A stretch of DNA of 64,000 nt, taken from Planomonospora sp. ID82291. Lineage in GTDB: Bacteria > Actinomycetota > Actinomycetes > Streptosporangiales > Streptosporangiaceae. Shown one piece after another: positions 20,051 to 43,100 of this stretch. A program made the position numbers and the translations under genes. Where the stretch lies: assembly GCF_015711645.1 (NCBI RefSeq), contig NZ_JABTEX010000010.1, positions 1 to 64,000 of the forward strand, given 5' to 3'. Each line of letters begins with the position of its first letter. Within the stretch, counting starts at the first letter, position 1. A model generated the notes under the pieces. It saw nothing but the letters and a program-made list of their open reading frames with translations, did no database searches and was not told the origin of the DNA.

Positions 20051-20833
20051 ATGAAGAAGGTCCAGGCCCGCTACTACCACCGAGGCCGTATCAAGCCGAT
20101 CCGCCTCATCGTCATTCACTCGATGGAGGCCCCGGAGAAGCCCGCCACCGCCGAGAACGTCGCCCGCTGGTTCGCCACCAGCTCCCCGAAGACCTCGGCG
20201 CACGTCTGCGTCGACAACAACAGCATCGTCCGCTGCGTGGACGACGGCGACACCGCGTGGTGCGCGCCGAACGCCAACGCCGACGGCCTGCACATCGAGA
20301 TGGCCGGCTACGCCCGCCAGTCCCGCGCCGAATGGCTCGACGCGTTCTCTCTGGCCATGCTGCGCAACGCGGCGAAGGTCGCCGCCGCCTGGGTGACCAA
20401 GTACAAGATCCCCGTCCGCAAGCTCACCCCGGCCGAGGTCCGCGCCGGCCGCAAGGGGTTCTGCGCGCACGTCGACGTCACCAACGCCTACCCGGGCACC
20501 GGCTCCCACACCGACCCGGGCAAGGGCTTCCCCTGGGATCGGTTCTTCGCGTTCGTCCGCGAGGAGCTCGACGGCAAGCCCGCTAAGCCCGTCGCCTGGT
20601 CCCGCCCGCTCGTCTACGTCAAGGGCAAGCCGTACATGACCGGCCCGGACGTCGAGGCGTGGCAGGACCGCCTGGACGATCTCGGCTACGACGTCGACGT
20701 GGACGGCCTGTACGGGCCCGGCTCGACCGCGGCCACCAAGAAGTTCCAGGCCGACGCGGGGCTGCTCGTCACCGGCACCGTGGACAAGACCACGTGGGCG
20801 AAGGCCAGCGAGAAGGCGGCCGCGAAGAAGTGA
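20051..20833 (+). CDS. Endolysin: N-acetylmuramoyl-L-alanine amidase with peptidoglycan-binding domain
   Basis: ATG with GGGGGAGCG upstream. Residues ~15-170 are an Amidase_2 domain: RLIVIHSME (His23), and GSHTDPGKGFPWD (His153 and Asp) supply likely zinc ligands. Residues ~195-255 are a PG_binding_1 domain (TGPDVEAWQDRLDDLGYDVD, DGLYGPGSTAATKKFQ). It cuts the amide bond between MurNAc and L-Ala and so opens the host wall at lysis. No signal peptide, so release needs a holin; a candidate lies two genes downstream. P2 control fits late expression. Confidence 0.9.
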   Translation: MKKVQARYYHRGRIKPIRLIVIHSMEAPEKPATAENVARWFATSSPKTSAHVCVDNNSIVRCVDDGDTAWCAPNANADGLHIEMAGYARQSRAEWLDAFSLAMLRNAAKVAAAWVTKYKIPVRKLTPAEVRAGRKGFCAHVDVTNAYPGTGSHTDPGKGFPWDRFFAFVREELDGKPAKPVAWSRPLVYVKGKPYMTGPDVEAWQDRLDDLGYDVDVDGLYGPGSTAATKKFQADAGLLVTGTVDKTTWAKASEKAAAKK

Positions 20834-21018
20834 ACGCCGAGGAGTGGAAGGCCGGCCGCGGCCGCGCCCGGGTCAACGGCTGGTTCGAGGTCACTCTCGA
20901 CTGGGGCGGCTCCGAGGCATGCATGCCGCCGGACGAGGCCGACGAGATAGCCGAGGCGCTGAAGGCCGCGGCCCGCGAGGCGCGGGCCCGGTCGGCGGAG
21001 AGCGGGCCCGCCCGGTGA
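20830..21018 (+). CDS. 62-aa hypothetical protein in lysis cassette
   Basis: GTG overlaps the endolysin stop (GTGA), and its own stop overlaps the next GTG. VNAEEWKAGRGRARVNGWFE is followed by a helical Ala/Arg/Glu C-terminus. No membrane segment. Its position between endolysin and holin candidate suggests a lysis accessory, but function is unknown. Confidence 0.65.
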   Translation: MNAEEWKAGRGRARVNGWFEVTLDWGGSEACMPPDEADEIAEALKAAAREARARSAESGPAR

Positions 21019-21305
21019 TCGGCTGGATCATCTACCTCACCGGGGTCGTCGTCGTAGCGCGCAAGGTGATCACGCTCCTCCGGGACGACGGCCTGTACGA
21101 GCCCGATGACTGGACTGAGGACGCCGCGTTCCGCGCCATTGGACTGCTGATAGCGATCCCCTGGCCGCTCATCCTGCTCGGCGCGGTCCTCACCGGCCGC
21201 CTACCCAAGAGCCACCACGAACTCCGGGCCGAGCTCGCCGCGCACGAGCGCCGCATCGCCCAGCTCGAACGCGAGCGAGACCACTGTCCGAGGCCCATGG
21301 CCTAA
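21015..21305 (+). CDS. Two-span membrane protein, holin candidate (96 aa)
   Basis: GTG overlaps the previous stop. Two hydrophobic helices (VIGWIIYLTGVVVVA, residues 1-15; AIGLLIAIPWPLILLGAVLT, residues ~40-60) are followed by a charged coiled coil (LRAELAAHERRIAQLERER). Small size, two spans, a charged tail and coupling to the endolysin are typical of actinophage holins, which make the membrane hole that lets the endolysin out. No sequence family is identified, so the call rests on topology and context. Confidence 0.65.
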   Translation: MIGWIIYLTGVVVVARKVITLLRDDGLYEPDDWTEDAAFRAIGLLIAIPWPLILLGAVLTGRLPKSHHELRAELAAHERRIAQLERERDHCPRPMA

Positions 21306-21323
21306 CGGTTCCCGGAACGCGAC

Positions 21324-21358
21324 GACGCCCGGCCAGCGGGGAAGTCTGGCCGGGCGTC
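21324..21358. terminator. 13-bp bidirectional terminator
   Basis: GACGCCCGGCCAG and exact complement around a 9-base loop, between the lysis cassette (plus) and the end of the eight-gene minus-strand operon. Confidence 0.8.
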
Positions 21359-21376
21359 ACCCATATCTCCGGAGGG

Positions 21377-21985
21377 CTACAGCAGAACGGCCAGCGTCGC
21401 CCAGGTGGCTGCCGCGCCGGCCACGGTCCCGGCGGTGACCTGGGCGGGCGTGTGGTCGCGGATCATCACCCGCGACCAGCCGATCGCCGCGACCACCACG
21501 GCGCCGACCGCATAGACAGGGGCGGGCGGCAGCACCCACGCGAGCATCACCACGCTCCCGGCCGCGACCGCCGTGTGGAAGGAGATCTTCCACCAGAACG
21601 TGATGGGGCCGACCACGGCCAGCGTGGCGAGCATGATGGACACGCACGCCACCATCACCCGCGGCGCCCCGAGCACGACCAGGAGCACGAGCGCGAGCAC
21701 GACCAGGGCGACGATGACGCCGATCAGCCAGGGCCGTTGCGCCCGGTCGGTGATGTGCTTATCGCCGAACCGGCCGGACTTCACCCCGGCCGCGATGACC
21801 AGGGCGGGGATACCGCCGCACAGTCCGGCTGCCAGCAGCGCCCATCCGAGGCCGGACCAGCCGCCGGTGACCGCGCCCACCGCCAGCGGCAGACCCATGA
21901 CGAAGTGCGCGGGCGCGAACACCTCGGTGAGCCAGCGGGCCGCCGTCAGCAGCGCCGCCCGGTCGCGGACGTCGGTGGCGGTCAT
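21377..21985 (-). CDS. PAP2-like membrane phosphatase, module copy 2
   Basis: ATG at 21985 overlaps the stop of the preceding gene (ATGA). About six hydrophobic helices. PAP2 signature elements are recognisable: KHITDRAQRPW (motif 1-like), KISFHTAVAAG (motif 2, SxHT in place of PSGH) and GWSRVMIRDHTPAQVTAG (motif 3, SR...H..P.QV..G). PAP2 enzymes dephosphorylate lipid phosphates such as undecaprenyl pyrophosphate or phosphatidic acid at the membrane. Last gene of the duplicated four-gene module. Activity is inferred from motifs only. Confidence 0.78.
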   Translation of the reverse strand: MTATDVRDRAALLTAARWLTEVFAPAHFVMGLPLAVGAVTGGWSGLGWALLAAGLCGGIPALVIAAGVKSGRFGDKHITDRAQRPWLIGVIVALVVLALVLLVVLGAPRVMVACVSIMLATLAVVGPITFWWKISFHTAVAAGSVVMLAWVLPPAPVYAVGAVVVAAIGWSRVMIRDHTPAQVTAGTVAGAAATWATLAVLL

Positions 21986-23043
21986 TGCGGCCTCGGCAGG
22001 GTCACGTAGGCGCGGGCCACCTGAGCCAGCCACGCCGCCTCGGCTTCGATGCTGGTGCGGGTGGGCGCGGTCTGCTCGGCCACGTCCACCGCGCCCGCCG
22101 GCGCCGCTGACCTCTCGCCGCGGCGGTAGGCGGCGGCCGCGTCCGCCACCCAGCGCGCAGCCTGCTGAGCGTCGCTTTCCGACAGCGGGCCGGGCCCGTA
22201 CGGCGTCAGCGCCACCAGCGCTTCGCGGATCTCCACGGTGTGGCGCACCAGCTTCTCGTCGGCGGTGGCGGCAGCCATGACGGTGTCAGGGAACAGGCGG
22301 GTCAGCTCGGCGTGCAGCGGCCGCAGCGCTCGCACCGTCCGCCGCAGTTGCAGGCGCCGCCATCCGGTGGCGACCGCCGGGATGCAGGTGCCGAGCGTGC
22401 ACAGCAGCAGGCAGGCCGCCATGACCCAGCGGGCCTGAGTCAGTTTCAGGAAGCCGGGTCCGGCGATCAGCAGGGCGTACAGCGTGTAGAGCGGGGAGCC
22501 GATGCCGATGAGCATGCCGACGCCCAGGATGCCCATACCGAGCCGGGTGGTGCCGGGGTCGCCGGAGCTGTCGCGGCCGAGCGCATACCGCAGGGAGGCG
22601 TAGCCGGACACGGCCAGGGCCAGCCCGAGGAAGCCGTCGAACACGCCGAAGTACCAGCCGGCCGCGGCGCTGCCGTCCCAGTCCTCCATCTCGCCGACCT
22701 TGTGGTCGGCGGCGTTGTGCGCGATGACCAGCGCCCAGCCGGTAGCAGCGGCCGCGAACCACACGATGCGGGTGTTTCGGCCGGTGACGGCCATGGTGAA
22801 CGCGGCGATCGAGGCGGCGCCCACGGTGATGGCCACCCGTTTGGCCAGGGGCGTGAACTCCCAGCCGACGAGCGCGTTGAACCAGTCGGCGACGGGCGGA
22901 AGGGTCAGCGTCCAGCCCACCGCCAAGGACAGGAAGGTCAGCCACAGCGAGCGGGCGGCATTGGAACGGCGGACAGCCGGCGCCCGCCACACGACGACGG
23001 CCCACAGCACGGCCAGCACAAGGTATTGCCGGGCCTCAGCCAC
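21982..23043 (-). CDS. MAB_1171c-like multi-span membrane protein, module copy 2
   Basis: GTG start at 23043, overlapping the end of the ImmA gene by 8 bases. Residues ~1-240 contain about seven hydrophobic helices (YLVLAVLWAVVVW, LTFLSLAVGWTLTLPPVADW, GWALVIAHNAADH). Residues ~245-353 are a cytosolic domain with LHAELTRLFPD, KLVRHTVEIREALVALTP and AQQAARWVADAAAAY. This arrangement is that of actinobacterial proteins annotated as MAB_1171c family putative transporter; no transport activity has been shown. Same domain order as copy 1 at 24694-25758. Confidence 0.75.
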   Translation of the reverse strand: MAEARQYLVLAVLWAVVVWRAPAVRRSNAARSLWLTFLSLAVGWTLTLPPVADWFNALVGWEFTPLAKRVAITVGAASIAAFTMAVTGRNTRIVWFAAAATGWALVIAHNAADHKVGEMEDWDGSAAAGWYFGVFDGFLGLALAVSGYASLRYALGRDSSGDPGTTRLGMGILGVGMLIGIGSPLYTLYALLIAGPGFLKLTQARWVMAACLLLCTLGTCIPAVATGWRRLQLRRTVRALRPLHAELTRLFPDTVMAAATADEKLVRHTVEIREALVALTPYGPGPLSESDAQQAARWVADAAAAYRRGERSAAPAGAVDVAEQTAPTRTSIEAEAAWLAQVARAYVTLPRPQ

Positions 23044-23587
23044 GGCCGCCGCCCAGCGGGTGCCCTAGGACGCCTTCGGCGCGGCGCCCGGTGGCCCCCG
23101 AAGCCCGGCGTGCTTCGGCGGCCGCCCGGCTCATCACGGCGGTGGCGAACGCTTCGGCCTCTTGCTCTGCGGGTTGGTCGTAGGTCGAGCGGGCCGCGGC
23201 CGCGCGGGCGATCACAGCGGGCGGCAGGTGCGGGAAACTCTGCTGCAGCAGGGAGATCACGTTTCCTTCAGAGGTAGCGGACTGGTCGTGCCCGGCCACG
23301 ATGTGCCCCAGCTCGTGAGCGGCGACCTGCGCCTTGAGCGCCGGGATGCGGGCATAGCCAGCGTCGATGAACAGGTAGTCGATGCCGTCGCCGCCCAGCA
23401 CCCACAGGCCGCACCAGCCGGAGCGGGTCAGGCCGGTGATGACGTCGAGCTGGATGGTCCGGCCGAGCGCGGCGCCGAAGTGGTCGACCAGGGTCTCCGC
23501 GGTCACGAGGTGGGGTAGCCCGATCTGCTTCAAGATCCGATGAGGATCGAACGTGTCTCGCTCCACGCACCAGCCTCTTTCAGACAC
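23036..23587 (-). CDS. ImmA/IrrE-family metalloprotease, module copy 2
   Basis: GTG start. Zinc protease signature AAHELGHIVAGH (His91, His95) and a downstream acidic EQEAEAFATAVM supplying the third ligand. ImmA/IrrE proteases (M78) cleave XRE-type repressors to switch mobile elements or stress genes on; the partner XRE gene lies just upstream. The protein is 183 aa with a Gly/Arg-rich tail. 91 bases separate it from the XRE gene. Confidence 0.85.
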   Translation of the reverse strand: MSERGWCVERDTFDPHRILKQIGLPHLVTAETLVDHFGAALGRTIQLDVITGLTRSGWCGLWVLGGDGIDYLFIDAGYARIPALKAQVAAHELGHIVAGHDQSATSEGNVISLLQQSFPHLPPAVIARAAAARSTYDQPAEQEAEAFATAVMSRAAAEARRASGATGRRAEGVLGHPLGGGRG

Positions 23588-23677
23588 AAAGATGACAGCG
23601 TCTCATGTTTGCGAAATGATCAAGTCAGCGTATAGCAGCCCTCCCTCTCCCCGGCCGGGCGCGTACGGGACGGCTGA

Positions 23678-24106
23678 CTACGGTTGCTCGGGCGGCGCCT
23701 GGGCGGCCTTCAGCGCCTGCGCCAGCGCCTCGATCGCCAGCCGCGGATTCCCATCGGCTGTGCACCCCCGGAAGTTCAGGTGCTTGATCTGAGCCTCGCG
23801 CAGCACCTGGAGGACCCCCGAGGCGCGCAGCTCGGTGAAGTCGGCGAGTTCGCGCCGGATCTGCTCCCCGGCGGGGGAGTCCGCGAAGACGTCGGCGCCG
23901 AAACCGAAGAACGCCGCGATGGCCGCCACGGTGGCCTCGTCGGGCCGCGGCCGGACGCCTTCCAGAAGGTCCTGCAGCGCCGCCGCATCCACCCGGATGC
24001 CGGCGGCCGCCAGCCCCGCCTGGACCTCCTCGACGGCGTACTCCCGGCCGTCAGGGTGAGGGACTGCCTGCCACACCTGGCGCAGGCACGTACTGAATGT
24101 CGACAT
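23678..24106 (-). CDS. XRE-family regulator, module copy 2
   Basis: 142 residues, HTH at about residues 22-70 (EYAVEEVQAGLAAAGIRVDA, LQDLLEGVRPRPDEATVAAI, AAFFGFGADVF). It matches copy 1 in the lead-in (TFSTCLRQVWQAVP versus TFADRLNRIWEQVP) and in FADSPAGEQIRRELADFTEL versus FADSPAGARIRQELSELRAM. It starts 13 bases after the PAP2 gene of copy 1, so it has no promoter of its own visible and is probably read through from the operon head. Confidence 0.8.
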   Translation of the reverse strand: MSTFSTCLRQVWQAVPHPDGREYAVEEVQAGLAAAGIRVDAAALQDLLEGVRPRPDEATVAAIAAFFGFGADVFADSPAGEQIRRELADFTELRASGVLQVLREAQIKHLNFRGCTADGNPRLAIEALAQALKAAQAPPEQP

Positions 24107-24118
24107 CTGCTCGGCTTT

Positions 24119-24697
24119 CTAACTGAAGATCGCGAGGATGAGCAGCGGCGTCGTGGCTCCCTGCGCCAGGCCGACCATCACCTGCGCGGGGGTGTGCTCG
24201 CCGAGGCGGACCCGCGACCAGGCGATCGCCGCACTCGCGGCGATTGCCGCAGGCAGCATCCACGGCCCGAGGAGGTAGACCATCCATACGCCGAACCCGG
24301 CGACTGATGAGGCGTGCCAGGACACATTCCATACGCGCGCCACGGGGATCTTGACGACGAAGCCGGTCAGGATCGACGCTACGAGGCTCACCAGGACCGG
24401 CGGCGCGCCCGCCACGACGAAGACGACCAGGCATGCGAGGAGGATGCCGGCCGCGATGACCAACGGAAGCGTCCTCTTGAGGGGACTCCCCTTGTCATCC
24501 ATCGCCTTGATCACGACCAAGGGCGCGATGACGCACGCCACCGTGGTGGCGAGGCCCCACAGCAGTCCCACGCCGCCCGCCTGAAGCGTCCCGGCCAGGG
24601 GCGGCAGGACCGGCCCGAGGACGCTCGGGCCGAGGACCGCTGAGGTCACCGCGGCGACGCGGTGAGTGCGCGTCGCCGCGTCCGTACTGGACGTCAC
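24119..24697 (-). CDS. PAP2-like membrane protein, module copy 1
   Basis: The GTG at 24697 overlaps the preceding stop, which decides this start over a longer frame. About six hydrophobic helices. Motif 2-like VSWHASSVAG and motif 3-like AWSRVRLGEHTPAQVMVG are conserved; motif 1 is weak (DDKGSPLKRTLP). The same positions as in copy 2 but overall divergent, indicating an old duplication. Catalysis is uncertain because the first motif is degenerate. Confidence 0.72.
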   Translation of the reverse strand: MTSSTDAATRTHRVAAVTSAVLGPSVLGPVLPPLAGTLQAGGVGLLWGLATTVACVIAPLVVIKAMDDKGSPLKRTLPLVIAAGILLACLVVFVVAGAPPVLVSLVASILTGFVVKIPVARVWNVSWHASSVAGFGVWMVYLLGPWMLPAAIAASAAIAWSRVRLGEHTPAQVMVGLAQGATTPLLILAIFS

Positions 24698-25758
24698 CGT
24701 TGCCCTGCCGCGATGCGCGCATAGGACTGCGAAACGGCGCCGAGCCATTTCGCCTCGTCCATGAACTCCTGCCGCGCCCCGCGGGTGGCCACCGCCACCC
24801 CGCTCCTGGAGACGCTCTCCCCTGCAGCGTGGTTAGCGATCGCCGTGGCGAACCACTGGGCCGCCGCCTGCGGATCGGACTCGGGAGCGGGGTCCGGGTG
24901 GAAGGCAGCCAGGCCGGCCTGAGCGTCGCGGATCTCCACCACATGCCGGATCAGCTGTTCTTCGCTGCTGGGCATCGGCAGCACCCGCTCGGGGAAGATC
25001 GCGGCCGCCGCGGAGTGCAGGGGCGTCAAGTCGTTCAGGAGGCGGCGGACTCGGCGGGAGTGCCTCGCGGCGCCGACCTCCAACACGATCGAGCCGGCCA
25101 CGCTGGCGAGCATCATCGCCCCCTGGATACCGCGGAACTGCTGGTCGACGTAGACGCCGGGCCCGGCGACCAGCAGGCACCACAGGATGTACAAGGCCAC
25201 AGGGAAGCAGATGATGGTGCCGCAGCCGAGGATGGCCATGCCGATGCGAATGTCTCGTCGGGTTCCGCGGCCGGTGGCCGCGTGCCACAGGCTGACACCG
25301 CCCGCGCTGGCGAAGGTCACGGCCAGGAACAGCTCGTAGGCGGTGAAGTAGACGCGGCCCGCCATGGAGCCGTCCCAGTCAGCGATGGCACCGACCGTGT
25401 GACCGGAGGCGAAGTGCGCGCCGGCCATGACGACGAGGGTGGCCAGCGCGGTGGGCCATACCCAGCGGGTAGGCCGTTGGGCGATGGTGAAGTACAAGCC
25501 GCACAGCGACGCACCGGACAAGACGGCTACAGCCCGTTTCACACCGGAGATGAGGGGCCACCCCGCCCAGGCGTCGACCTGGTCGAACCAGGGCCCGAGC
25601 ACGGTGGGGGAGGACAACGTCCACGTCAGCGTGATGCCCAGGTACATGAGCCACCGTTGACGGGGAAGGCCTGGGGTGTTCGCTGATCGGGTACGCCAAG
25701 CGACGACCAGCCACATGGGCACCATCACGATCAGGTGAAAGAGCTCCGCTTTCGACAT
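24694..25758 (-). CDS. MAB_1171c-like multi-span membrane protein, module copy 1
   Basis: ATG start 6 bases after the ImmA gene. Seven or so hydrophobic helices in residues 1-235 (LFHLIVMVPMWLVVAW, TRWVWPTALATLVVMAGAHF, YELFLAVTFASAGGVSLW) then a cytosolic region with LNDLTPLHSAAAAIFPE, QLIRHVVEIRDAQAGLAAFH and PQAAAQWFATAI that aligns with copy 2. A role in membrane signal sensing linked to the adjacent repressor and protease is plausible; nothing is established. Confidence 0.75.
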   Translation of the reverse strand: MSKAELFHLIVMVPMWLVVAWRTRSANTPGLPRQRWLMYLGITLTWTLSSPTVLGPWFDQVDAWAGWPLISGVKRAVAVLSGASLCGLYFTIAQRPTRWVWPTALATLVVMAGAHFASGHTVGAIADWDGSMAGRVYFTAYELFLAVTFASAGGVSLWHAATGRGTRRDIRIGMAILGCGTIICFPVALYILWCLLVAGPGVYVDQQFRGIQGAMMLASVAGSIVLEVGAARHSRRVRRLLNDLTPLHSAAAAIFPERVLPMPSSEEQLIRHVVEIRDAQAGLAAFHPDPAPESDPQAAAQWFATAIANHAAGESVSRSGVAVATRGARQEFMDEAKWLGAVSQSYARIAAGQR

Positions 25759-25764
25759 GAGGGG

Positions 25765-26271
25765 TTAGTCCTTCCAGTGGTTCAGCGCCTGTTCAGCGGC
25801 ACGCCCGATGGGGGATCGGGATTGAAGGTTGGCGCGGGCCATCACGAGCGTGGCGAAACGCTCCGCTTCCTGCTCGGCTTCCAGCTCGTAGGTGGTGCGG
25901 GCCATCACAGCCCGGACGACCACGTGAGGCGGCAAGGCCGGGAACCGGGCCTGCAAGAGAGCGATGAGGCTGGCTTCCGCAGTGGCGCCCTGATCGTGTC
26001 CGGCGACGACATGGCCGAGCTCGTGCGCGACGATGTGCGTCTCGAAGATGGGTACGGCGGCGGCGGCCTGGTCAACGAAGATGTAGTCGACCAGGTCCTC
26101 GCCGCGGATCCATAGGCCGCACCAGCCCATGGAGGCGGAGAGGCCGGGCAGGGTCGAGAGGCGGATGTCGCGTCCCAGCGCATGGGCGTAGTGGTCGATC
26201 AGGGTGTGAGCGGTGAGTCGGCGAGGTAGGCCGATCTTTTGCAAGGTCGCGGACAGGTCGAACTTGGGCAT
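25765..26271 (-). CDS. ImmA/IrrE-family metalloprotease, module copy 1
   Basis: 168 residues from ATG. VAHELGHVVAGHD (His83, His87) is the zinc site and EAEQEAERFATLVM holds the third ligand. Also conserved with copy 2: MGWCGLWI near residue 50 and ALLQARFPALPP. Predicted to cleave the XRE protein encoded 50 bases upstream, as ImmA does to ImmR in ICEBs1; that pairing is inference. Confidence 0.85.
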   Translation of the reverse strand: MPKFDLSATLQKIGLPRRLTAHTLIDHYAHALGRDIRLSTLPGLSASMGWCGLWIRGEDLVDYIFVDQAAAAVPIFETHIVAHELGHVVAGHDQGATAEASLIALLQARFPALPPHVVVRAVMARTTYELEAEQEAERFATLVMARANLQSRSPIGRAAEQALNHWKD

Positions 26272-26320
26272 GCAGGCACACCTTGATCAAAGAGCGCAAT
26301 GCCGCGCAACGGTACGGCGG

Positions 26321-26773
26321 TCAGGGGCCGGGCTGGCTCGGGGGGCGGGTATCGGGGAGGCCCGCCCCCCTGCGCATTGCCTCGACGACGGCCTGGAGCG
26401 TGTCGAGGTCAGCCTCCGGTAGTCCGGCGGCCGTGCGCGCGAAGGCGGCGATCTTGCCTTCCCGCATGAGGTCGAGCAGCCCTGACTCCTTCATCGCCCG
26501 TAGCTCGCTCAGCTCTTGCCGTATCCGCGCGCCGGCTGGGGAGTCGGCGAAGACGGTGGCGTCATCGAAGCCGAAGAACTTCGCCAGCGCCTCCTTCAGC
26601 TCCGGAGATGGGTTGGGCCGTTTCCCCGAGCGCAGCATCGACAGGTACGCGGCCGAGACCTCCGTGCCCGCCTTGGCGAGAGCGTCGGCCACTTCTTGCA
26701 GGGTGTACGGCTTACCGTCCTCGCGGGGAACCTGCTCCCAGATCCGGTTGAGCCGGTCTGCAAACGTGGGCAC
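26321..26773 (-). CDS. XRE-family regulator, module copy 1 (operon head)
   Basis: The GTG at 26773 gives VPTFADRLNRIWEQVP, which lines up with copy 2; longer upstream frames lack similarity. HTH at about residues 20-70 (YTLQEVADALAKAGTEVSAA, YLSMLRSGKRPNPSPELKEA, LAKFFGFD). C-terminal part is acidic/helical. First gene of the eight-gene operon; TTGTCC and TTAAAT with an 18-bp spacer in the upstream 250 bp could be its promoter. Likely represses its own operon and perhaps the divergent gene. Confidence 0.82.
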   Translation of the reverse strand: MPTFADRLNRIWEQVPREDGKPYTLQEVADALAKAGTEVSAAYLSMLRSGKRPNPSPELKEALAKFFGFDDATVFADSPAGARIRQELSELRAMKESGLLDLMREGKIAAFARTAAGLPEADLDTLQAVVEAMRRGAGLPDTRPPSQPGP

Positions 26774-27024
26774 TCTGCTGCCTTCCAGGTCGATACAGGG
26801 CGGATCGGTGGAGACGTTACCCCTCGGGTGGTCCATGACGCGATCCGGTTGACATATCGTATCGTTTCCGGACACAGTAGCCCCCGGAATTTAACTAAAA
26901 CCTCCTGACCTGGGACAAGGCATACACCGTAGTTAACAACTGATGAACGACCTGGGGGTTTGGCCTGTGTCACACGGCCAGCTCGACCCCCAGCCCCAGC
27001 GACATCACGCCTCGGAGACCCGCG
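26774..27024. promoter_or_regulatory. Divergent control region of the XRE operon and the 27025 gene
   Basis: Plus strand: TTGACA (26849-26854), 18-bp spacer containing TATCGTATCG, CACAGT (26873-26878). Minus strand: TTGTCC, 18 bp, TTAAAT. The TATCG tandem sits between the two promoters and is a candidate operator for the XRE protein. AT-rich relative to flanks. Confidence 0.5.
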
Positions 27025-28665
27025 TTGCAACTGGACCATGACGGCCGGAGACTGTTCCTTGAGCTCTCCGCCCACCTGTATGAGCAAGCCGTCGAGCGCG
27101 CAACCGGTGATGATGCTCAGCGCAACGAGGGTCTGGCCTTCTGGCAGGTCATCCGGAACGCGATGGACCAGGAGGTCGCCGAGCACAACAAGCGGATGGA
27201 GGTCTACCGGAAGCTGGAGGACCTCGCCGTCACCCGCATGGCCCGCGTGCAGGGCATGCCCTACCACCGCATCGGGGCCCGAGCCGGGAATAGGTCCCGC
27301 ACCTGGGCCCACCAGCACACCCTGCCCGCGGACATCGTGGACGACTTCCTGGGACTGCTGGAGGAGGCCGAAGAGGAGCAACGCGCCGCCTACCTGCGCA
27401 ACATCATGGAGCCCGAGGCCACCGCGGAGCAGGGCGGCAGCAGCGTCCTCACCCTGTCCACCGTCCGCCAGAAGGTCCGCAACGAGCAGGACGCGGCGCG
27501 GTTGACGATCATCTACCGGCGGCTGCGGCACTGGCTCGGCGGAGCCGCCGCCGCTGTGGGCCCGGCCTACGTCGCGGCGCGGGCCGCCGTGGAGGGCTAC
27601 ACCTCGACCGTGCACACGGCGCTGATGAGCAACGGCGCGCTTCTGCCGCTCCCCGCCGTGGACCCGGTGAGCGGTACCGGCCTGACGAGCGTGCTGTCGG
27701 CGGCCTCCGGAACGACGACCGCGCAGGCGTCGGGTCCGGTGGCGACGGCGGTCGGGAAGTTCGTCGCCTCGACCATCATCGGTGTGCAGGCCACCGCGGG
27801 CGTCTCGGCGCCGGCCGCCACGGTGGTCGTGGCCACCATGGGTGCGGCGAGTGCGCCCGTGGTCCGCGCCGTCGAGACCGTCGTGGCGGACACGGTGACC
27901 AAGCCGATCGCGGCCGCTTTCGGCCTGGACGGCGGGGACCCGGGCCCGGTCCTGGTGCCGCCGGTCGTACCGCTCCCCGCAGAGACGCCGACCGGGGCAC
28001 CGAGTGAGGTACCCGCCTCGGCCGGCGCTCCGCCGACGCCCCTGCCAACGCCGACGCTGGAGCCCCCAAAGCCTGCCGACACCGCGGCGGCCGAACCGGA
28101 CGTCGGCGCCGAGCGGGTGCCGGCGTCGGCACCGGCGACGACGCCCGCGTCGACGCCTTCGCCGACGCACCGGACCAGCGACGCGAGCCCGGCACCTACT
28201 CCTACTGCTTCTCACGCGCCGACGCCCACGCAGGCACACGAGACCCCGGCCCCTGTGGAGCCGACGTCGGTGCCCGCACCCATGCCTACCGAGAAGCCGA
28301 AGCCTCCGGAGCCGACCACCGCGCCGACGCCCACGGAGGCGCCGATGCCTACAGGGACGGCGACTGCGGACCCGGCCCCCACCCCGACGCCTACGGACTC
28401 GCCCACGGCGGAGCCGGAGCCGACTCCCACCGAGACGGAGACCTCGGCGCCCGCGCCGACGCCCACGGACCCGCCGAGCGAGTCGCCCGCTCCGGAGCCG
28501 ACTCCGACGCAGAGCAGCGCGCCCGCTCCGGAGCCCACGGGCGAGCCGGACGATGCTCCCGCCGGAGGCGAGCAGAGCGCGCCGGATCCTCTTCCCGCGG
28601 GGGCGGGGGAGGCTCCGGTGGCGTGGGGCTGGTGGTACGAGCCCGTCACGCGAGAGATCGCGTAG
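27025..28665 (+). CDS. HTH-like protein with hydrophobic middle and Pro/Thr-rich C-terminus
   Basis: TTG start with CGGAGA upstream; no ATG or GTG in frame is close. Residues 1-175 are soluble and helical with an HTH-like MARVQGMPYHRIGARAGN near residue 75. Residues ~175-300 are Ala/Val/Gly-rich and hydrophobic with several possible membrane segments (VATAVGKFVASTIIGVQ, APAATVVVATMGAASAPVV). Residues ~310-530 are a long PTPT/EPTPT low-complexity spacer. Divergent from the XRE-ImmA operon, so probably regulated with it. No known family; could be a membrane-spanning sensor or surface protein. Confidence 0.65.
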   Translation: MQLDHDGRRLFLELSAHLYEQAVERATGDDAQRNEGLAFWQVIRNAMDQEVAEHNKRMEVYRKLEDLAVTRMARVQGMPYHRIGARAGNRSRTWAHQHTLPADIVDDFLGLLEEAEEEQRAAYLRNIMEPEATAEQGGSSVLTLSTVRQKVRNEQDAARLTIIYRRLRHWLGGAAAAVGPAYVAARAAVEGYTSTVHTALMSNGALLPLPAVDPVSGTGLTSVLSAASGTTTAQASGPVATAVGKFVASTIIGVQATAGVSAPAATVVVATMGAASAPVVRAVETVVADTVTKPIAAAFGLDGGDPGPVLVPPVVPLPAETPTGAPSEVPASAGAPPTPLPTPTLEPPKPADTAAAEPDVGAERVPASAPATTPASTPSPTHRTSDASPAPTPTASHAPTPTQAHETPAPVEPTSVPAPMPTEKPKPPEPTTAPTPTEAPMPTGTATADPAPTPTPTDSPTAEPEPTPTETETSAPAPTPTDPPSESPAPEPTPTQSSAPAPEPTGEPDDAPAGGEQSAPDPLPAGAGEAPVAWGWWYEPVTREIA

Positions 28666-31728: not shown

Positions 31729-31754
31729 GCAAGACCAGGCAGAGCACTCGGTGA
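31725..31754 (+). CDS. Nine-codon coupling ORF before the integrase
   Basis: GTG at 31725 overlaps the stop of the preceding gene and TGA at 31752-31754 overlaps the integrase GTG at 31751. The peptide would be VSKTRQSTR. Such an ORF keeps ribosomes moving through the 22-base gap and could couple integrase translation to the upstream genes. The alternative is chance. Confidence 0.45.
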   Translation: MSKTRQSTR

Positions 31755-32959
31755 ACGAGCACCTCCCCGAGACCACCACGGCGGGCAGCGATGCGCTGCC
31801 CGCCGTGGTGACGCCCGTCGATTCCCTCCGGAACCCCTACCTGGCCTACCTCGCCTCCCTCGACTCCGTAGAGTCCAAGCGCACCATGCGCGGCTGCCTC
31901 GACCGGATCGCCCGCATCCTCGCGGGCCGCGATCCGAACGGCACCGACCCGGAGACGGGCAAGCCCGACCCCGCCGTGCTGTCGATCACCGGGGAGAACG
32001 TCCGCTGGCATCTCCTGCGCTACGAGCACGCCATCCGGCTCCGGGAACTCCTCGCCGAGCAGACCAACAAGCAGGGGGAGCCCTGGTCACCGGCCTACCG
32101 CAACAAGCATCTGGTGGCGCTCCGGCAGATCCTCGACCAGGCGTGGCAGCTCGGTCTCATGAGCGCCGAGGAGAAGGACCGTGCCGTACGGCTCGACCCG
32201 TTCAAAGGCACGCGACTCCCTGCCGGCGAGCACCTGCCGATCGAGCGGGTCGGCGCGCTGCTCGCCGAGTGCGACGCCGACGCCGTCCTGGCCGGGCCCG
32301 ACGACGAGACCCCGCGCGAGCGTGCCCGGCGAGAGGTCCTGCGCCGGGTGGCGCTGCGGGACGCGGCGATCATCGCCGTGCTGTACGCCTCCGGGGTCCG
32401 GCGGGCAGAGCTCGCTGGGCTCGCCCTGGCCGACTACGACCCGGCCGCCCGCTCCCTGCGGGTACGCGGCAAGCGGGACAAGGAACGGCTCGTCTACATC
32501 ACCACCAGCGCCGTCGCCCGCGTCGAGGCATGGCTGACGGTGCGCGGCCGCGAGCCCGGGGGCCTATTCACGCCGTTCACGCCGCGCGGCGGCCACATCC
32601 GCCGCGACGCCCAGGGCCGCCCGGCGCACATGGACGGGCGGACGGTCGGCGACGTCCTCAACCTGCGCGGCGAGCAGGCCGGGGTCGGACCGCAGGCCGC
32701 GCACGACTTCCGCCGCACGTTCATCGGTGAGCTGCTCGACTCCGGCGTGGACCTGGCCACCGCCCAAGCCCTCGCCGGGCACGCCTCACCGACCACGACC
32801 GCCCGCTACGACCGGCGGCCGGAGCGACGCCGCCGCGAGGCCGTCGACCAGCTGCGCACACCGCCCGCGGTCCCGCTTCCCGGAGTCGTACGAAAGCGGG
32901 ACAAGCCGCCCGCCAGACAGGAAGATGAGACTCGCTCACGCGGCCGCCGGAGCGGCTGA
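31751..32959 (+). CDS. int: Tyrosine recombinase / integrase
   Basis: GTG start. 402 residues: N-terminal SAM-like arm/core-binding part (residues ~25-150) and a catalytic domain. The catalytic set is complete: Arg218 (GVRRAEL), Lys about 244 (GKRDKER), His318 and Arg321 (HDFRR), His344 (LAGHASPTTT) and Tyr353 (ARYDRR). It carries out site-specific integration of the element by Tyr-DNA covalent strand exchange. The C-terminal tail is basic. No attachment site is recognised next to it. It is the last gene of the run that begins at 29586. Confidence 0.92.
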   Translation: MNEHLPETTTAGSDALPAVVTPVDSLRNPYLAYLASLDSVESKRTMRGCLDRIARILAGRDPNGTDPETGKPDPAVLSITGENVRWHLLRYEHAIRLRELLAEQTNKQGEPWSPAYRNKHLVALRQILDQAWQLGLMSAEEKDRAVRLDPFKGTRLPAGEHLPIERVGALLAECDADAVLAGPDDETPRERARREVLRRVALRDAAIIAVLYASGVRRAELAGLALADYDPAARSLRVRGKRDKERLVYITTSAVARVEAWLTVRGREPGGLFTPFTPRGGHIRRDAQGRPAHMDGRTVGDVLNLRGEQAGVGPQAAHDFRRTFIGELLDSGVDLATAQALAGHASPTTTARYDRRPERRRREAVDQLRTPPAVPLPGVVRKRDKPPARQEDETRSRGRRSG

Positions 32960-36156: not shown

Positions 36157-37281
36157 CTATGCGCCCGTCAGGCCAAGGGAGGGCTGTTTCAGCAGGACGC
36201 GCAGTCGCTCCTCTGCTGCGTGAACCGCAGCGGTGACGGCGTCCATGTGATCCGCCGGCAGGACTCCCGCGCCGAGTCCCGACGCGGCGAGCACGGCGGT
36301 GAGCACCTCCTCCTGCCGGTGGGTCATCCGCGAGCGCATCACGGGGTGGTCCAGGACATCGCGGGCAGCGTAGGCGTCACCGGATGCCACGTCGATGACC
36401 GCGGCCCGCAGATCAGCGGCGCACGGCGTGGACCGGTCGGCGGTCAGGTCGAACGCGGTCAGGCCGAGACGGGCCCGGAACGCCGCCGTCATCGGCTCCG
36501 GCTCCGCGATCAACGTGAGCGTCTCCCGCACCACCTGGTCGATCTCCTGCTCCGGCGCCAGGGAGGGGTCCGGCCGGCAGTAGATGCGCAGGATGGCCGC
36601 GACGGTGTTCTCCCACGGCTCGTCCGGGGCGGTGGAGTCGATCATTTCGGTGGCCTGCTGGTGGAGGCCCTGCTCCAGCAGCGACATGATCTTGATCTGG
36701 CGTCCGTCGAGGAGCCGGTTGCCGATGCCGTGGTGCGCGGCCATGGTCGCGGCCGCCGCGGTCCAGCGGCCGCCGCGGGCGAGGGCTCTGGCGCCGTCGA
36801 TGAGCAGGGCGACCCACAGCTCCTCGCAGAGTTTCCGGTGGTCGGCGTCGGTGCGGATCCACGGCGACAGGTCGACGTCGTGGCCGCGGATGAGCGCCGT
36901 CCCGCGCTGCTGGGCGGCGCGGTACAGCCGCTGGAGCACCTCGAAGGCGCCGTCGCCGTCGCCCTCGCGGATCAGCAGCCGCGCGATGTTCACCACTGGC
37001 ATCAGCGCCATCACGGCGATGTCCTGCTCCAGGCTGCCGGCCCCGGCGAAGACGCGGTGCTGCCTCCAGCACAGGTCCGCGGCAAGGTCGGGCATCCCGG
37101 TGTCGGAGGCGATCAGCGCGGCGAAGTTCAGGACGCCGCAGGCGCGGGCCACCCGCTCGTGGTGGTCCGCGCCGTCCGACTCGACCAGCGCGGTGAGCTC
37201 GGCGATGCGTTTGTCCAGGGGCATTCCGGGCGGTTTGGGCCGCCGGACCAGGGGGATGCGGCAGGCTATCGCTGGGTTCAT
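36157..37281 (-). CDS. TPR-like helical protein in the lanthipeptide cluster
   Basis: 374 residues, entirely helical with repeated HxxA/LxxA spacing (RVARACGVLNFAALIASDTG, DLAADLCWRQHRVFAGAGSL, LCEELWVALLIDGARALARG), typical of tetratricopeptide-like scaffolds. It starts 15 bases after the methyltransferase gene and is the last gene of the minus-strand biosynthetic operon. Its role is unknown; TPR proteins of this size in RiPP clusters may bind peptide or regulate. No membrane segment. Confidence 0.7.
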   Translation of the reverse strand: MNPAIACRIPLVRRPKPPGMPLDKRIAELTALVESDGADHHERVARACGVLNFAALIASDTGMPDLAADLCWRQHRVFAGAGSLEQDIAVMALMPVVNIARLLIREGDGDGAFEVLQRLYRAAQQRGTALIRGHDVDLSPWIRTDADHRKLCEELWVALLIDGARALARGGRWTAAAATMAAHHGIGNRLLDGRQIKIMSLLEQGLHQQATEMIDSTAPDEPWENTVAAILRIYCRPDPSLAPEQEIDQVVRETLTLIAEPEPMTAAFRARLGLTAFDLTADRSTPCAADLRAAVIDVASGDAYAARDVLDHPVMRSRMTHRQEEVLTAVLAASGLGAGVLPADHMDAVTAAVHAAEERLRVLLKQPSLGLTGA

Positions 37282-37296
37282 CGCGCTGCTCTCCTT

Positions 37297-39348
37297 CTAC
37301 GGCCAGTCGATGACGAGTCGGCTGTAGGGCTTGTCGATGACGAACCGCGGGTCGGCGGCCGTCAGCAGGTCGCGGGCGCTGCCGGTGGCCATGCGGAAGG
37401 TAGGGGCCGGAGCGTCGTTGCCGTAGTCGCGGTCCCACTCGCTGATCGCGGCCGCAACCTGCTCGGCGAGCACGGCGGCGCGCGAGCCGTGCCCGATGAC
37501 GCCGACCTCCCAGAACCGGCCCTCGCCATCCTCACCCTCGCGGACCGTCAGGTAGGCGAGGGAGTCGCCGTCGAGCGCGGCCATGGAACCCCAGCCGAAG
37601 TGCGGGGTGAAGCCGGGCCGCTGGCCGGGCAGCCGGGACAGGCCGTTCGGCAGGACGCACGCCAGCCACAGGTACAGCCACTCCCAGGGGGAGCCCTGCC
37701 GGAACTTCACCCCGGTGTAGACCTTGTGGGCGGGCTCGTCCAGGACGGTCCGGATCGCCTCCCGGTCGACGAGCTGCTCGCTGAAGGTCTCCAGGCGGAC
37801 GTTGCCTTCCCCGGCCATGAGCACCCGCGTGTAGACGTCGTCGCAGATGCCCTTGCGCAGCGGGACGAACGTCGCCATCTCGCAGGAGACCGTCTTCCAG
37901 ACCTCGCCGTCACGCTCGAACGCGAACGAGCGGGAGATGCTGCCGCGGATCCGCATCGGGATGACCACCCGGCCGCCGGGGGCGAGCTGGTCCAGCACCG
38001 TGACGGGGACGTCTCCCGTGCCGACGGTGAACTGGATCCGGTCGAACGGGGCATGGCCGGGCAGCCCGGCCGCGCCATCACCAAGGACGCAGGTGACGTT
38101 CGAGACGCCCGCCTCCGCCACGTTCTTCCGCGCGCTGGCCACCAGGTCCTCGTCAACGTCGACGGTCCACACGTGACCGTCCGGGGCGACGAGCCGCCCG
38201 AGCAGGGCCGCGTTGTAGCCGGTGGCGGCCCCGGCTTCCAGGACCTTGTCGCCGGGGCGGGCGCCCAGCTGCTCCAGTTGGGTGGCGACGATGGACGGCG
38301 CGGAGATGCACGAGATCATCTCGCCGGTCTCGTCGTCGTGCTTCACGGGCACGGCGTCATCGACGTACGCGGCCTCGACGCTGGCGTCGGGGATGAACCG
38401 GTGGCGCTCGACGGTGCGGAACGCGTCGATGATCGCGGGGGTGCGCAGGTGCCCGGAGGCGGTGAACCTGTCCACCATGGCTTCGCGCAGCTCGGTGGGG
38501 TCGACGGTCGTAGTGATGGTGGTCTCCATTTTCTCGACGGTAGGGGTTACGGGTACGGACTGGCGGGTGGACACGGTGGCCGGTTCGTCATCGCCGAACG
38601 CGACGCGGCGGCCCAGCCATGCCGCCGCGGCCTGCTCGGCCACGGGTACGGCGGCGCGGTTGAACGCGAAGATGGCGTGGTGGGCGAGCACCGCGCGCAG
38701 GCCTCGCGTCAGGTGCCCGCCGGCCGCGAGCCGGGCCAGGCGGCGGCCGGCGTCGGCGAACGCGGTGACCCGCTCAGCCCAGCCCGGTTCGGTGGCCTGT
38801 CGCTGCGCGGCGTCGGCGTTCATCAGGCGCCGCATGGCGCCGATCGCTGCCGTCCGGCGGGCCGCGTCCTGCGGCGGGTCGATCAGCGGGCGGAGGGCTG
38901 CGAGCTTCGCCCACACGTCGCCGATCTCGAACGGGTCGAGTCCGGCGGCGCGGTACATGGTGGACAGCAGCAGCACGCAGCGTTCCTTGGCGTGCGGGCT
39001 GCCGGTCTCGGCCAAGGCGGGAGGGCTGTCGGCGCAGAACACCTCATGAGCGACGGCCATACCGTCCGGGCCGCCGAAGGCGTCGGTCTCGGGCTCGTAG
39101 ATGCCGCCGACCCAGCCGGTCGCCAGGTCGTCGGCGACGAGCTGGTCGAGCAGGTCGCCCGCGGGGTGTTCGGTGCGCAGCCGGAGCCCTCCGTCCTTGT
39201 GCAGGAAGTGGAACCGCTGGCCGTGCAGGGCGGCCGACAGGGCGGCGGCGGCCTTGGGGCTGATCCCGTTGCCGCCGGGGAAGCTGATGGTGGCGTGCCA
39301 CCAGTCCGGTTCGGCCGCCGGGACCCGGTTGTCCTCGGTGGAGTTCAT
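37297..39348 (-). CDS. Lanthipeptide elimination domain fused to PIMT-like methyltransferase (FxLD system)
   Basis: 683 residues. The first ~260 (WWHATISFPGGNGISPKAAA, HFLHKDGGLRLRTEHPAGDL, GGIYEPETDAFGGPDGMAV) match the thiopeptide-type/SpaB C-terminal domain that in LanB enzymes performs glutamate elimination. From ~300 onward is a protein-L-isoaspartate O-methyltransferase-like domain with SAM motif VLEAGAATGYNAALL near residue 365 and VWTVDVDEDLVASAR. This is the architecture annotated as methyltransferase, FxLD system. The methyltransferase part is expected to methylate an Asp of the modified peptide (as OlvSA does, leading to isoAsp); whether it does so here is inference. Confidence 0.83.
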   Translation of the reverse strand: MNSTEDNRVPAAEPDWWHATISFPGGNGISPKAAAALSAALHGQRFHFLHKDGGLRLRTEHPAGDLLDQLVADDLATGWVGGIYEPETDAFGGPDGMAVAHEVFCADSPPALAETGSPHAKERCVLLLSTMYRAAGLDPFEIGDVWAKLAALRPLIDPPQDAARRTAAIGAMRRLMNADAAQRQATEPGWAERVTAFADAGRRLARLAAGGHLTRGLRAVLAHHAIFAFNRAAVPVAEQAAAAWLGRRVAFGDDEPATVSTRQSVPVTPTVEKMETTITTTVDPTELREAMVDRFTASGHLRTPAIIDAFRTVERHRFIPDASVEAAYVDDAVPVKHDDETGEMISCISAPSIVATQLEQLGARPGDKVLEAGAATGYNAALLGRLVAPDGHVWTVDVDEDLVASARKNVAEAGVSNVTCVLGDGAAGLPGHAPFDRIQFTVGTGDVPVTVLDQLAPGGRVVIPMRIRGSISRSFAFERDGEVWKTVSCEMATFVPLRKGICDDVYTRVLMAGEGNVRLETFSEQLVDREAIRTVLDEPAHKVYTGVKFRQGSPWEWLYLWLACVLPNGLSRLPGQRPGFTPHFGWGSMAALDGDSLAYLTVREGEDGEGRFWEVGVIGHGSRAAVLAEQVAAAISEWDRDYGNDAPAPTFRMATGSARDLLTAADPRFVIDKPYSRLVIDWP

Positions 39349-39394
39349 GTCGTCGTGTTCGCTCCTGCTCGGTAGAGGTCGGGTGGTGCGGGGG

Positions 39395-42492: not shown

Positions 42493-42555
42493 TCCGTCCT
42501 GTACGCCATCCGGGAAGACAGGGGCCCGAGCCGGTGAGGCCCGCGCGAGCCGGGT

Positions 42556-42729
42556 CTACGACGTCGTGCAGGCGCTCGGGCAGGAGCTTCCGCAGTTGTC
42601 GCCGGTGCTGCACATCAGCACCGTGTCGGCCGCCGGGGTGCCCTCGACATAGGTGATGTCGAAGCCGAACGGGTCGACGTCGGTCTCGCTGTCCGCGGTG
42701 GTCGGCTGGTCGATGGTCGGGGTGCTCAT
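42556..42729 (-). CDS. FxLD-type lanthipeptide precursor peptide (57 aa)
   Basis: The ATG at 42729 is preceded by GAGGAGGACAGGG, an excellent ribosome site, which decides the start. Leader residues 1-38 include DPFGFDITYVEG, an FxLD-like recognition motif (here F-D-I-T). The core CSTGDNCGSSC, PSACTTS has four Cys and five Ser/Thr before or between them, enough for up to four thioether rings, plus GDN as a candidate Asp methylation site. Directly upstream of the dehydratase. Confidence 0.85.
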   Translation of the reverse strand: MSTPTIDQPTTADSETDVDPFGFDITYVEGTPAADTVLMCSTGDNCGSSCPSACTTS

Positions 42730-43100
42730 CCCTGTCCTCCTCTGCTGTGCGGGGAACGCCGGCATGGGAGTCACGCCAGCGGGTGGGGACCCTGCATCGC
42801 CTCCCGGGGCGCCGCAGGGGTGGCGCCTGTTGTTCCTCCGCCGGCGGCGTCCCGTGGACCTTGTGCTGCCTGCGGAGTCGTACGGCGCGGCAGCACGGGA
42901 AGCGAGTGGTTTCCCCCGTGCTGCCGCGCCAGTTCATGGGGGACCGGCGGAAACGGTCGTGCGTTCGACGCCGAGCCGGTCGGCGGCCGCGTCGAGGTCT
43001 TCCGGCAGCAGGTTCCATCGGTGTACGAGCCGGGCCGCCGCGGACTTCTGCCGGAGGCGCCTGCGTATCCACCGGAGGGTGAGGAAGCCCCGGCGTGTGA
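42730..43100. other. Gap between precursor and upstream operon
   Basis: No supported gene. It contains a strong hairpin (see 42884-42930) and must hold the precursor promoter, but no clear P1 or P2 element is present, unlike the phage-like units. That difference suggests the cluster came in as separate cargo. Confidence 0.5.
42884..42930 (-). terminator. 16-bp hairpin upstream of the lanthipeptide precursor
   Basis: GGCGCGGCAGCACGGG and exact complement around a 15-base loop. It could end the 44172-43101 transcript or attenuate read-through into the precursor gene. Confidence 0.65.

What the first reader, a model, noticed from the sequence alone, without database searches (positions are those of the whole stretch)
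21377..26773. Tandemly duplicated four-gene XRE / ImmA-IrrE / MAB_1171c-like / PAP2-like module
Seen: two consecutive copies in identical gene order on one strand with overlapping or tiny gaps; each has an HTH, an HELGH protease, a seven-span protein with a cytosolic tail, and a PAP2-like membrane protein. Known: ImmA/IrrE proteases cleave XRE repressors. Inference: a membrane-linked sensing or immunity switch in which the membrane pair feeds the protease-repressor pair. Two diverged copies suggest different specificities, as in defence or quorum systems. I know of no described function for this four-gene set.
Basis: partly seen in the sequence, partly recalled or inferred. Interest (0 to 1): 0.85.

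Follow-up and report, generated by a model that had tools for sequence, protein, structure and literature searches.

The report
Doubled membrane-receptor protease switch in phage
Two old, diverged copies of a four-gene set (DNA-binding protein, protease, seven-span membrane protein, lipid-phosphatase-like membrane protein) sit side by side on a circular phage-like element; the same set, and versions with other enzymes in fourth place, recur in actinobacteria, which suggests a little-studied way of passing a membrane signal to genes through a protease.

Summary
In detail: at 21377-26773 (minus strand) two four-gene sets lie head to tail, probably one eight-gene operon. The first gene is an EspR-like XRE (A: E 2.8e-14 to EspR), then a HExxH ImmA-like protein, a seven-span MAB_1171c/DUF6545 protein (predicted N out, C in) and a PAP2-fold protein. 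The linkage is real: of 62 high-scoring family members sampled from the class, 60 have ImmA within about 5 kb, 52 an XRE, 9 a PAP2 directly downstream; others carry P450, FAD enzyme, amidase, amidohydrolase or methyltransferase there. In two relatives the seven-span and PAP2 parts are one polypeptide. The duplication is old: a second element in the same genome carries the same A-B array, and A groups with other loci before B. Copy B's XRE has an acidic recognition segment. The window lies on a 120-kb, apparently circular, phage-like element. Best reading: a membrane receptor gates an ImmA protease that inactivates an EspR-like regulator, with PAP2 processing the receptor's probably lipid-like ligand. 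The coupling is inferred from gene order and the fusion; ligand, cleavage and output are untested. The defence reading has little support.

The parts
26321..26773 (-). XRE_A, EspR-like HTH regulator (150 aa, GTG start), recognition segment SAAYLSMLRSGKRPNPS
   Evidence: (EspR 3qf3, E 2.8e-14)
25765..26271 (-). ImmA_A, ImmA/IrrE-like metalloprotease (168 aa), HELGH
24694..25758 (-). 7TM_A, MAB_1171c/DUF6545 seven-span protein with cytosolic helical tail (354 aa)
24119..24697 (-). PAP2_A, PAP2-like membrane protein; GTG start overlaps the 7TM_A stop by 4 nt
23678..24106 (-). XRE_B, EspR-like protein whose recognition segment is acidic (DAAALQDLLEGVRPRPD)
23036..23566 (-). ImmA_B, ImmA/IrrE-like metalloprotease, HELGH (GTG start)
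21982..23043 (-). 7TM_B, MAB_1171c/DUF6545 seven-span protein (353 aa, GTG start)
21377..21985 (-). PAP2_B, PAP2-fold membrane protein; ATG overlaps the 7TM_B stop by 4 nt (a longer ORF starts at 22033)
26866..26889 (.). inverted repeat TTCCGG-N12-CCGGAA 93-116 nt upstream of XRE_A, around a TAnnnT hexamer; same place in C12 with one mismatch; candidate operator
   Evidence: weak (two sequences)

Best explanation
Each copy is a membrane-gated proteolytic switch. The seven-span protein (N outside, C inside) is a receptor whose cytosolic DUF6545 tail relays an outside or membrane signal to the neighbouring ImmA-like metalloprotease. The protease then cleaves or displaces the EspR-like XRE protein, which holds its own operon promoter (candidate operator 26866-26889) and probably other promoters of the element. 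The PAP2 protein sits with the receptor and dephosphorylates or otherwise processes its ligand, most likely a lipid or isoprenoid phosphate, as P450, FAD enzymes, amidases and a methyltransferase may do for other ligands in other family members. Copy B keeps the whole set but its XRE has probably lost or changed DNA binding, so it would act as a partner, decoy or alternative substrate that tunes copy A. On this phage-like element the output would be expression of genes of the element. Shown by computation: order, operon packing, linkage elsewhere, exchange of the fourth gene, the fusion, predicted topology, PAP2 fold, EspR homology, purifying selection. Inferred: receptor role, coupling to ImmA, cleavage of XRE, ligand type, output, role of B.
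For: Linkage: of 62 class-sampled members 60 have ImmA and 52 an XRE within about 5 kb; 0 of 25 control windows (1.5 kb each side) have either. 7TM and PAP2 in one ORF in L031 and L032; 4-nt overlaps here. Fourth gene: PAP2 beside 21 of 82 members; P450 directly downstream of 8 of 82, against 3 among the other called genes of these loci (Fisher p 6e-8; the loci are related and the P450 search was seeded with four P450s of these loci, so p is too small); FAD 4, amidase 2, amidohydrolase 2, methyltransferase 1. On the tree P450 needs 4 changes, at least 3 forced by starred branches. Positive-inside: K+R 2, 2, 2 in loops 1, 3, 5 and 0 in loops 0, 2, 4, 6 of 7TM_A. 7TM_A model: seven long helices and a helical tail, pLDDT 74.6; nearest solved folds GPCR/rhodopsin bundles (Z 15.8, rmsd 3.6 over 210). 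PAP2_B model: the 16 best rows are PAP2-superfamily proteins, Z 13.1 to 7.8. HExxH in 79 of 80 ImmA-profile hits. pN/pS 0.26-0.63 in all eight gene pairs between C1 and C12.
Against: No biochemical link between 7TM and ImmA is shown. Two of the 62 (L100, with neither; L105, with an HTH protein only) and a later-fetched pair, L153 (two 7TM genes), have no ImmA hit. PAP2 is beside 9 of 62 sampled members, and 44 of 82 tree rows had none of the fourth genes I looked for, so the enzyme is dispensable for the family. Of ten downstream genes scanned, one is a thiamine-binding protein, one a GntR regulator and one has no match. Foldseek gives no PDB match at E <= 0.001 for the 7TM or for PAP2_B, and helical bundles often reach high Z, so 'receptor' rests on topology and context. 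NCBI names the family a putative transporter. PAP2 motifs are altered: S-x-H in 22 of 24 and H-[TS]-x-x-Q in 24 of 24, in place of the PSGH and HxxxD that I recall (counted by eye), so activity is unsure. The known protease-repressor pairs of this type are described as answering DNA damage (PMC10233336, passages), which needs no membrane receptor.
Confidence: 0.45

Rival explanations
1. It is the element's lysogeny or maintenance switch: the EspR-like XRE is the phage repressor, ImmA inactivates it on DNA damage as in ICEBs1, and the membrane genes are lysogenic-conversion cargo in the same operon.
For: The array lies between an endolysin gene (20051-20833) and an integrase gene (31751-32959) on C1, and between an endolysin and a different integrase gene on C12. 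C1 carries terminase-like, portal, capsid, head protease, tail and tape-measure genes and looks circular. A third phage-like contig, G004:C15, carries a single copy about 2.3 kb from an endolysin gene. ImmR/ImmA modules control mobile elements (PMC10233336, passages).
Against: Family members with ImmA and XRE also lie on contigs of 5.9 to 9.7 Mb, that is chromosomes, often with enzymes as fourth gene; I did not look for prophages around those. The 7TM-ImmA link holds in nearly the whole sample.
Confidence: 0.25
2. It is a regulator-and-enzyme operon of specialised or lipid metabolism, working like a conservon: the fourth gene is the output enzyme, switched by the other three.
For: P450, FAD enzyme, amidase, methyltransferase or PAP2 directly downstream; in L031 and L032 a BTAD-type regulator, a SAM methyltransferase and a P450 lie with the set. 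Conservons are four-gene actinobacterial regulatory operons (PMC13343842, start of abstract in the listing).
Against: PAP2 is fused to the 7TM in two loci, which speaks for a part of the sensor and not a separate output; copy B carries its own PAP2.
Confidence: 0.18
3. It is an anti-phage or abortive-infection system: ImmA relieves XRE repression on infection and the membrane pair damages the membrane.
For: Weak matches of XRE_A to capH (E 1.9e-7) and of both ImmA to capP (E 0.0036 and 0.0051) in PADLOC; a place on a phage-like element could mean superinfection exclusion.
Against: No other PADLOC family among the eight proteins at E <= 1; recurrent linkage to metabolic enzymes in relatives.
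Confidence: 0.08

Closest known systems
ICEBs1 ImmR/ImmA (and CapH/CapP, DdrO/IrrE)
   Same: XRE-type DNA-binding protein next to a HExxH ImmA/IrrE-type protease on a mobile element (PMC10233336, passages)
   Different: the XRE is EspR-like, and a seven-span protein and PAP2 are in the operon; cleavage not tested
EspR of Mycobacterium tuberculosis (PDB 3qf3, 3r1f, 4ndw)
   Same: XRE_A residues 3-139 match EspR, E 2.8e-14; profile of A and B copies E 1.5e-21
   Different: XRE_B has an acidic recognition segment; I know of no protease partner of EspR (recalled; no paper of the library holds both ImmA and EspR as whole words)
MAB_1171c family / DUF6545 (NF042915, PF20182)
   Same: both 7TM proteins are over the DUF6545 cut-off
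   Different: the family is named putative transporter; a paper on M. abscessus reports about 50% less biofilm in a MAB_1171c knockout (PMC8707978, passages); no switch is mentioned in those passages
PAP2 lipid phosphatases (PgpB, LpxE, LPP1)
   Same: predicted fold of PAP2_B, Z up to 13.1; Pfam PAP2
   Different: altered catalytic motifs
Conservons (CvnA-D)
   Same: four-gene actinobacterial regulatory operon (start of abstract, PMC13343842), often with a P450 (recalled)
   Different: Pfam finds none of the four core protein types among the eight proteins

Membership tests
ImmA/IrrE (M78) metalloproteases | HExxH zinc motif | tested here: met
   HELGH in both copies; 79 of 80 ImmA-profile hits, the exception a fragment
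ImmA/IrrE (M78) metalloproteases | score over Pfam M78 cut-off | tested here: inconclusive
   B 19.1 bits against 22; A not listed for this family at E <= 1
ImmA/IrrE (M78) metalloproteases | cleaves or inactivates its XRE partner | not testable with these tools
   needs co-expression or purified proteins
EspR-like regulators | sequence similarity over nearly the whole length | tested here: met
   XRE_A residues 3-139 to EspR 5-131, E 2.8e-14
EspR-like regulators | basic or neutral recognition segment (taken as sign of DNA binding), copy A | tested here: met
   net charge +3
EspR-like regulators | basic or neutral recognition segment (taken as sign of DNA binding), copy B | tested here: not met
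   net charge -2 in B of C1 and of C12; of 72 segments only two others (-3, L053 and L055) are below 0. So B is filed as EspR-related, not as an EspR-type DNA binder
MAB_1171c / DUF6545 | score over DUF6545 cut-off | tested here: met
   46.0 and 58.4 bits against 24.4
MAB_1171c / DUF6545 | score over NF042915 cut-off (100) | tested here: inconclusive
   B 138.7, A 95.7
PAP2 phosphatases | PAP2 fold | tested here: met
   PAP2_B model: 16 best VIA rows are PAP2 superfamily (that G6PC1, Aur1 and acid phosphatases belong there is recalled); Foldseek's own E-values were not significant. PAP2_A was not modelled
PAP2 phosphatases | canonical catalytic motifs (recalled: KX6RP, PSGH, SRX5HX3D) | tested here: not met
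   S-x-H and (S/A)Rx5H[TS]xxQ instead; so called PAP2-fold, not filed as an active phosphatase
GPCR / rhodopsin-like 7TM | seven helices, N out, C in, bundle fold | tested here: inconclusive
   topology fits; Z 15.8 but no Foldseek match at E <= 0.001; no PDB sequence match under E 0.07
HisKA_7TM sensor regions | profile similarity | tested here: inconclusive
   hhalign probability 7.9% against 13 members from the class
CBASS with CapH/CapP | CBASS effector and cyclase in the operon | tested here: inconclusive
   only the eight proteins were scanned; capH/capP weak, no other defence family
Conservon | CvnA-D core proteins | tested here: not met
   Pfam finds HTH, M78-like, DUF6545 and PAP2 types, no kinase, roadblock or GTPase, among the eight proteins

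The most novel reading that the evidence does not exclude
MAB_1171c proteins are a large class of bacterial GPCR-like receptors that signal by regulated proteolysis: a seven-span receptor switches an ImmA protease that destroys an EspR-like regulator, each with its own ligand-making or ligand-breaking enzyme; phages have taken the receptor up, doubled it and turned one copy into a DNA-blind modulator, to read lipid signals of the host population.
Probability: 0.2. Interest if true: 0.9.

Novelty: new variant of a known kind. Interest (0 to 1): 0.6.

Why it matters
If true, a gene family found in about a fifth of sampled genomes of this actinobacterial class (85 of 394) and now labelled a putative transporter is a receptor family with a proteolytic relay, a route from membrane to gene that is neither two-component nor sigma/anti-sigma. 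The exchangeable enzyme gives a direct way to guess ligands, and the phage-like copies give a small, movable version to test. It would also give EspR-type regulators a protease partner. If only the linkage holds, it still gives a named partner set for an orphan family.

Tried and rejected
Recent local tandem duplication: rejected. A-A' (66-73%) and B-B' (73-88%) are closer than A-B (33-52%) across C1 and C12, and A is set apart from B together with L031/L032 by a starred branch (98*, SH-aLRT of a quick tree).

Obligate four-gene unit: rejected, PAP2 is beside 9 of 62 sampled members.

7TM as member of HisKA_7TM: hhalign probability 7.9%, left open. By sequence no PDB relative under E 0.07 for the 7TM profile of 54 rows, none under E 0.4 for the ImmA or PAP2 profiles. 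7TM_A has no match in the phage records and one in the plasmids, NZ_CP109431.1; the 7TM alignment found no relative in viral contigs and 3 loci in genome contigs. The genus holds only this genome.

Consensus promoters and terminators in 20800-27200: near chance (1 against 0.4, 2 against 1.9). The inverted repeat upstream of XRE_A is at the same place in C1 and C12, but each element has one more match with one mismatch elsewhere, and no exact repeat of 6 or more was found upstream in L031, L032 or L033, so support is weak.

Sample: from the matches I took 60 stretches (62 members), the highest-scoring ones; partial and weaker matches were left out, so the sample leans to the core of the family. 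The 82 members are these 62, 15 family hits of the window's own 7TM profile, 3 from genome contigs and 2 from C12; L153-L155 came later and are not in those counts. L100 and L036 were dropped from the tree as too short, and the two window copies were added.

Papers: MAB_1171c 1 paper, DUF6545 none, IrrE+PAP2+XRE none, ImmA+EspR none. Searches gave nothing on this set by their listings, 'irre' also matching other words; passages of PMC4255298 (no IrrE, no PAP2) and PMC9030533 (a prophage ImmA/IrrE gene, no such set) were looked at. The library is open-licence PMC only, so this does not show that nothing is in print.
Full report
What is there. On the minus strand of 21377-26773 lie eight ORFs in the order XRE, ImmA, 7TM, PAP2, twice (codons rechecked). 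Within each copy the genes overlap or lie close (largest gap 111 nt), and copy B starts 12 nt after copy A, so one transcript is likely. Third-position GC of 0.82-0.92 supports all eight as genes. Pfam and NCBIfam give DUF6545/MAB_1171c for the 7TM proteins and PAP2 for the last gene; HTH and M78-type matches are weak.

The first gene is EspR-like. XRE_A matches M. tuberculosis EspR over residues 3-139 (E 2.8e-14), and the profile of both copies and their C12 counterparts reaches E 1.5e-21. Many XREs of other family members align in the same way, though some have a different HTH region. The segment that holds the recognition helix has net charge +3 in A and -2 in B; the B copy on the second element is also -2; of 72 segments only two others (L053, L055, -3) are below zero. 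Between C1 and C12 XRE_B has pN/pS 0.55, so it is probably a working protein that no longer binds DNA in the same way. That last step is inference.

The duplication is old. The same genome, 7.58 Mb in 15 contigs, holds a second A-B array on contig C12. Same-letter copies are 66-88% identical, different-letter copies 33-52%. In the tree of 82 family members a starred branch (98) joins A of both elements with L031 and L032 and leaves B of both elements outside. The profiles find four EspR-like XREs, four ImmAs and four 7TMs in this genome, all in the two arrays.

The element. C1 is 120,341 bases; its first 80 bases recur 99 bases before its end, as in a circle. It carries terminase-like, portal, endolysin, integrase, capsid, head protease, tape-measure and tail genes. 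Of 110 genes called on C1, the BLAST lists have 25 rows against C12 and 30 against G004:C15, a contig of another genome of the family, some genes giving two rows. That contig has a single copy of the set, about 2.3 kb from an endolysin gene. So the set travels on a group of large phage-like elements. The family is Streptosporangiaceae by one tie: G141, 'same family', has a contig of the length (358,303) and match position of the Streptosporangium plasmid NZ_CP109431.1.

Linkage elsewhere. In the window's family 14 of 150 genomes, its own included, have a match to the window's 7TM profile; in the class 85 of 394, its own included, match NF042915. I fetched neighbourhoods of 15 family matches, 3 Streptomyces loci of genome contigs and 60 high-scoring class stretches. 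Of the 62 members in the class sample, 56 have ImmA upstream on the same strand and 60 within about 5 kb on either strand, 52 have an XRE within about 5 kb, 9 a PAP2 directly downstream, and all 9 have all four genes. Of the 15 family members 13 have ImmA, 7 PAP2 and 4 all four (L036 is a fragment). In 82 windows of 1.5 kb on each side, 78 hold ImmA, 58 an XRE, 21 a PAP2; in 25 control windows around HisKA_7TM genes of the same class none does.

The fourth gene is exchangeable. Of ten genes directly downstream of a 7TM gene that I scanned, seven are enzymes (P450 twice, FAD enzyme twice, amidase, amidohydrolase, methyltransferase), one a thiamine-binding protein, one a GntR regulator and one has no match. 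By similarity to those, P450s follow 8 of 82 members, against 3 among the other called genes of these loci (1,173 in all; Fisher p 6e-8; the loci are related and the seeds came from them, so this p is too small). On the tree PAP2 needs 5 changes (19.5 when shuffled), P450 4, FAD 3. 44 of 82 rows have none of these, so the core is XRE, ImmA and 7TM.

The membrane pair. In L031 and in L032 (WP_329430978.1) the 7TM and PAP2 are one open frame. This is the best evidence that the two act together. There a BTAD-type regulator, a SAM methyltransferase and a P450 lie within the same stretch. The model of 7TM_A (pLDDT 74.6, five sequences) has seven long helices and a helical tail. Charges place the N-terminus outside and the tail inside. 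The nearest solved folds are GPCRs and rhodopsins, Z up to 15.8 over 210 residues, but no Foldseek match is significant, and bundles score high in general. The PAP2_B model (pLDDT 83.6) has the PAP2 fold, Z 13.1 with rmsd 2.3 over 127 residues, the 16 best rows being of that superfamily, though again no Foldseek E-value is significant. Its motifs differ from those I recall for active enzymes.

How it most likely works. ImmA-type proteases inactivate XRE-type repressors on mobile elements, in CBASS and in Deinococcus (PMC10233336, passages). Here the protease gene lies between an EspR-like regulator and a seven-span protein with a conserved cytosolic tail: the eight columns conserved in at least 90% of 54 members all lie at residues 244-300. 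The simplest chain is signal, receptor, tail, ImmA, XRE, promoter; the fourth gene handles the ligand. A lipid-like phosphate is my guess from PAP2 and from the enzymes that replace it.

What remains open: trigger, cleavage, regulon, activity of PAP2, the job of copy B. The defence reading rests on weak capH/capP matches and on location. NCBI's label 'putative transporter' was not tested.

Noticed in passing
window 36157-42774: Lanthipeptide-type genes on the phage-like element: lantibiotic dehydratase N-terminal domain (40456-42492, E 7.5e-160), a protein joining the dehydratase C-terminal domain with a PCMT methyltransferase (37297-39348), and a short ORF (42556-42774) that could be a precursor, by eye.
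   Followed up: no
L006:9856-11343 (C1 73856-75343): One ORF matches phage head maturation protease in its first part and RNA ligase families in its second.
   Followed up: no
window 683-1792: PAPS-reductase-domain protein on the element.
   Followed up: no
window 27025-28665; L005:14374-16044: Divergent neighbour of the array: a long Pro/Thr-rich protein, kept beside the array on both elements at 29% identity; the window's copy has no Pfam or PHROGs match at E <= 0.01.
   Followed up: partly
L092, L154, L155: Two 7TM genes in direct tandem, about 1.2 kb apart, with one ImmA hit upstream; these could form receptor pairs.
   Followed up: partly
L062, L153: Other loci with two members 2.6-4 kb apart; L062 has two XRE-ImmA-7TM sets, the second followed by a P450; L153 has an XRE but no ImmA hit.
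   Followed up: partly
L031, L032 (NZ_CP109431.1): XRE is separated from ImmA by a methyltransferase and a divergent BTAD (in L031 also NB-ARC) regulator; in L032 an IS3 transposase and a group II intron protein lie between the fused 7TM-PAP2 gene and the P450.
   Followed up: partly
G000:C9:902335-902928 (L046): A chromosomal PAP2 protein of the same genome is close to the array's PAP2 (E 9.5e-46) but has no 7TM, ImmA or XRE hit in its 19-kb stretch; a possible source of the phage gene.
   Followed up: partly
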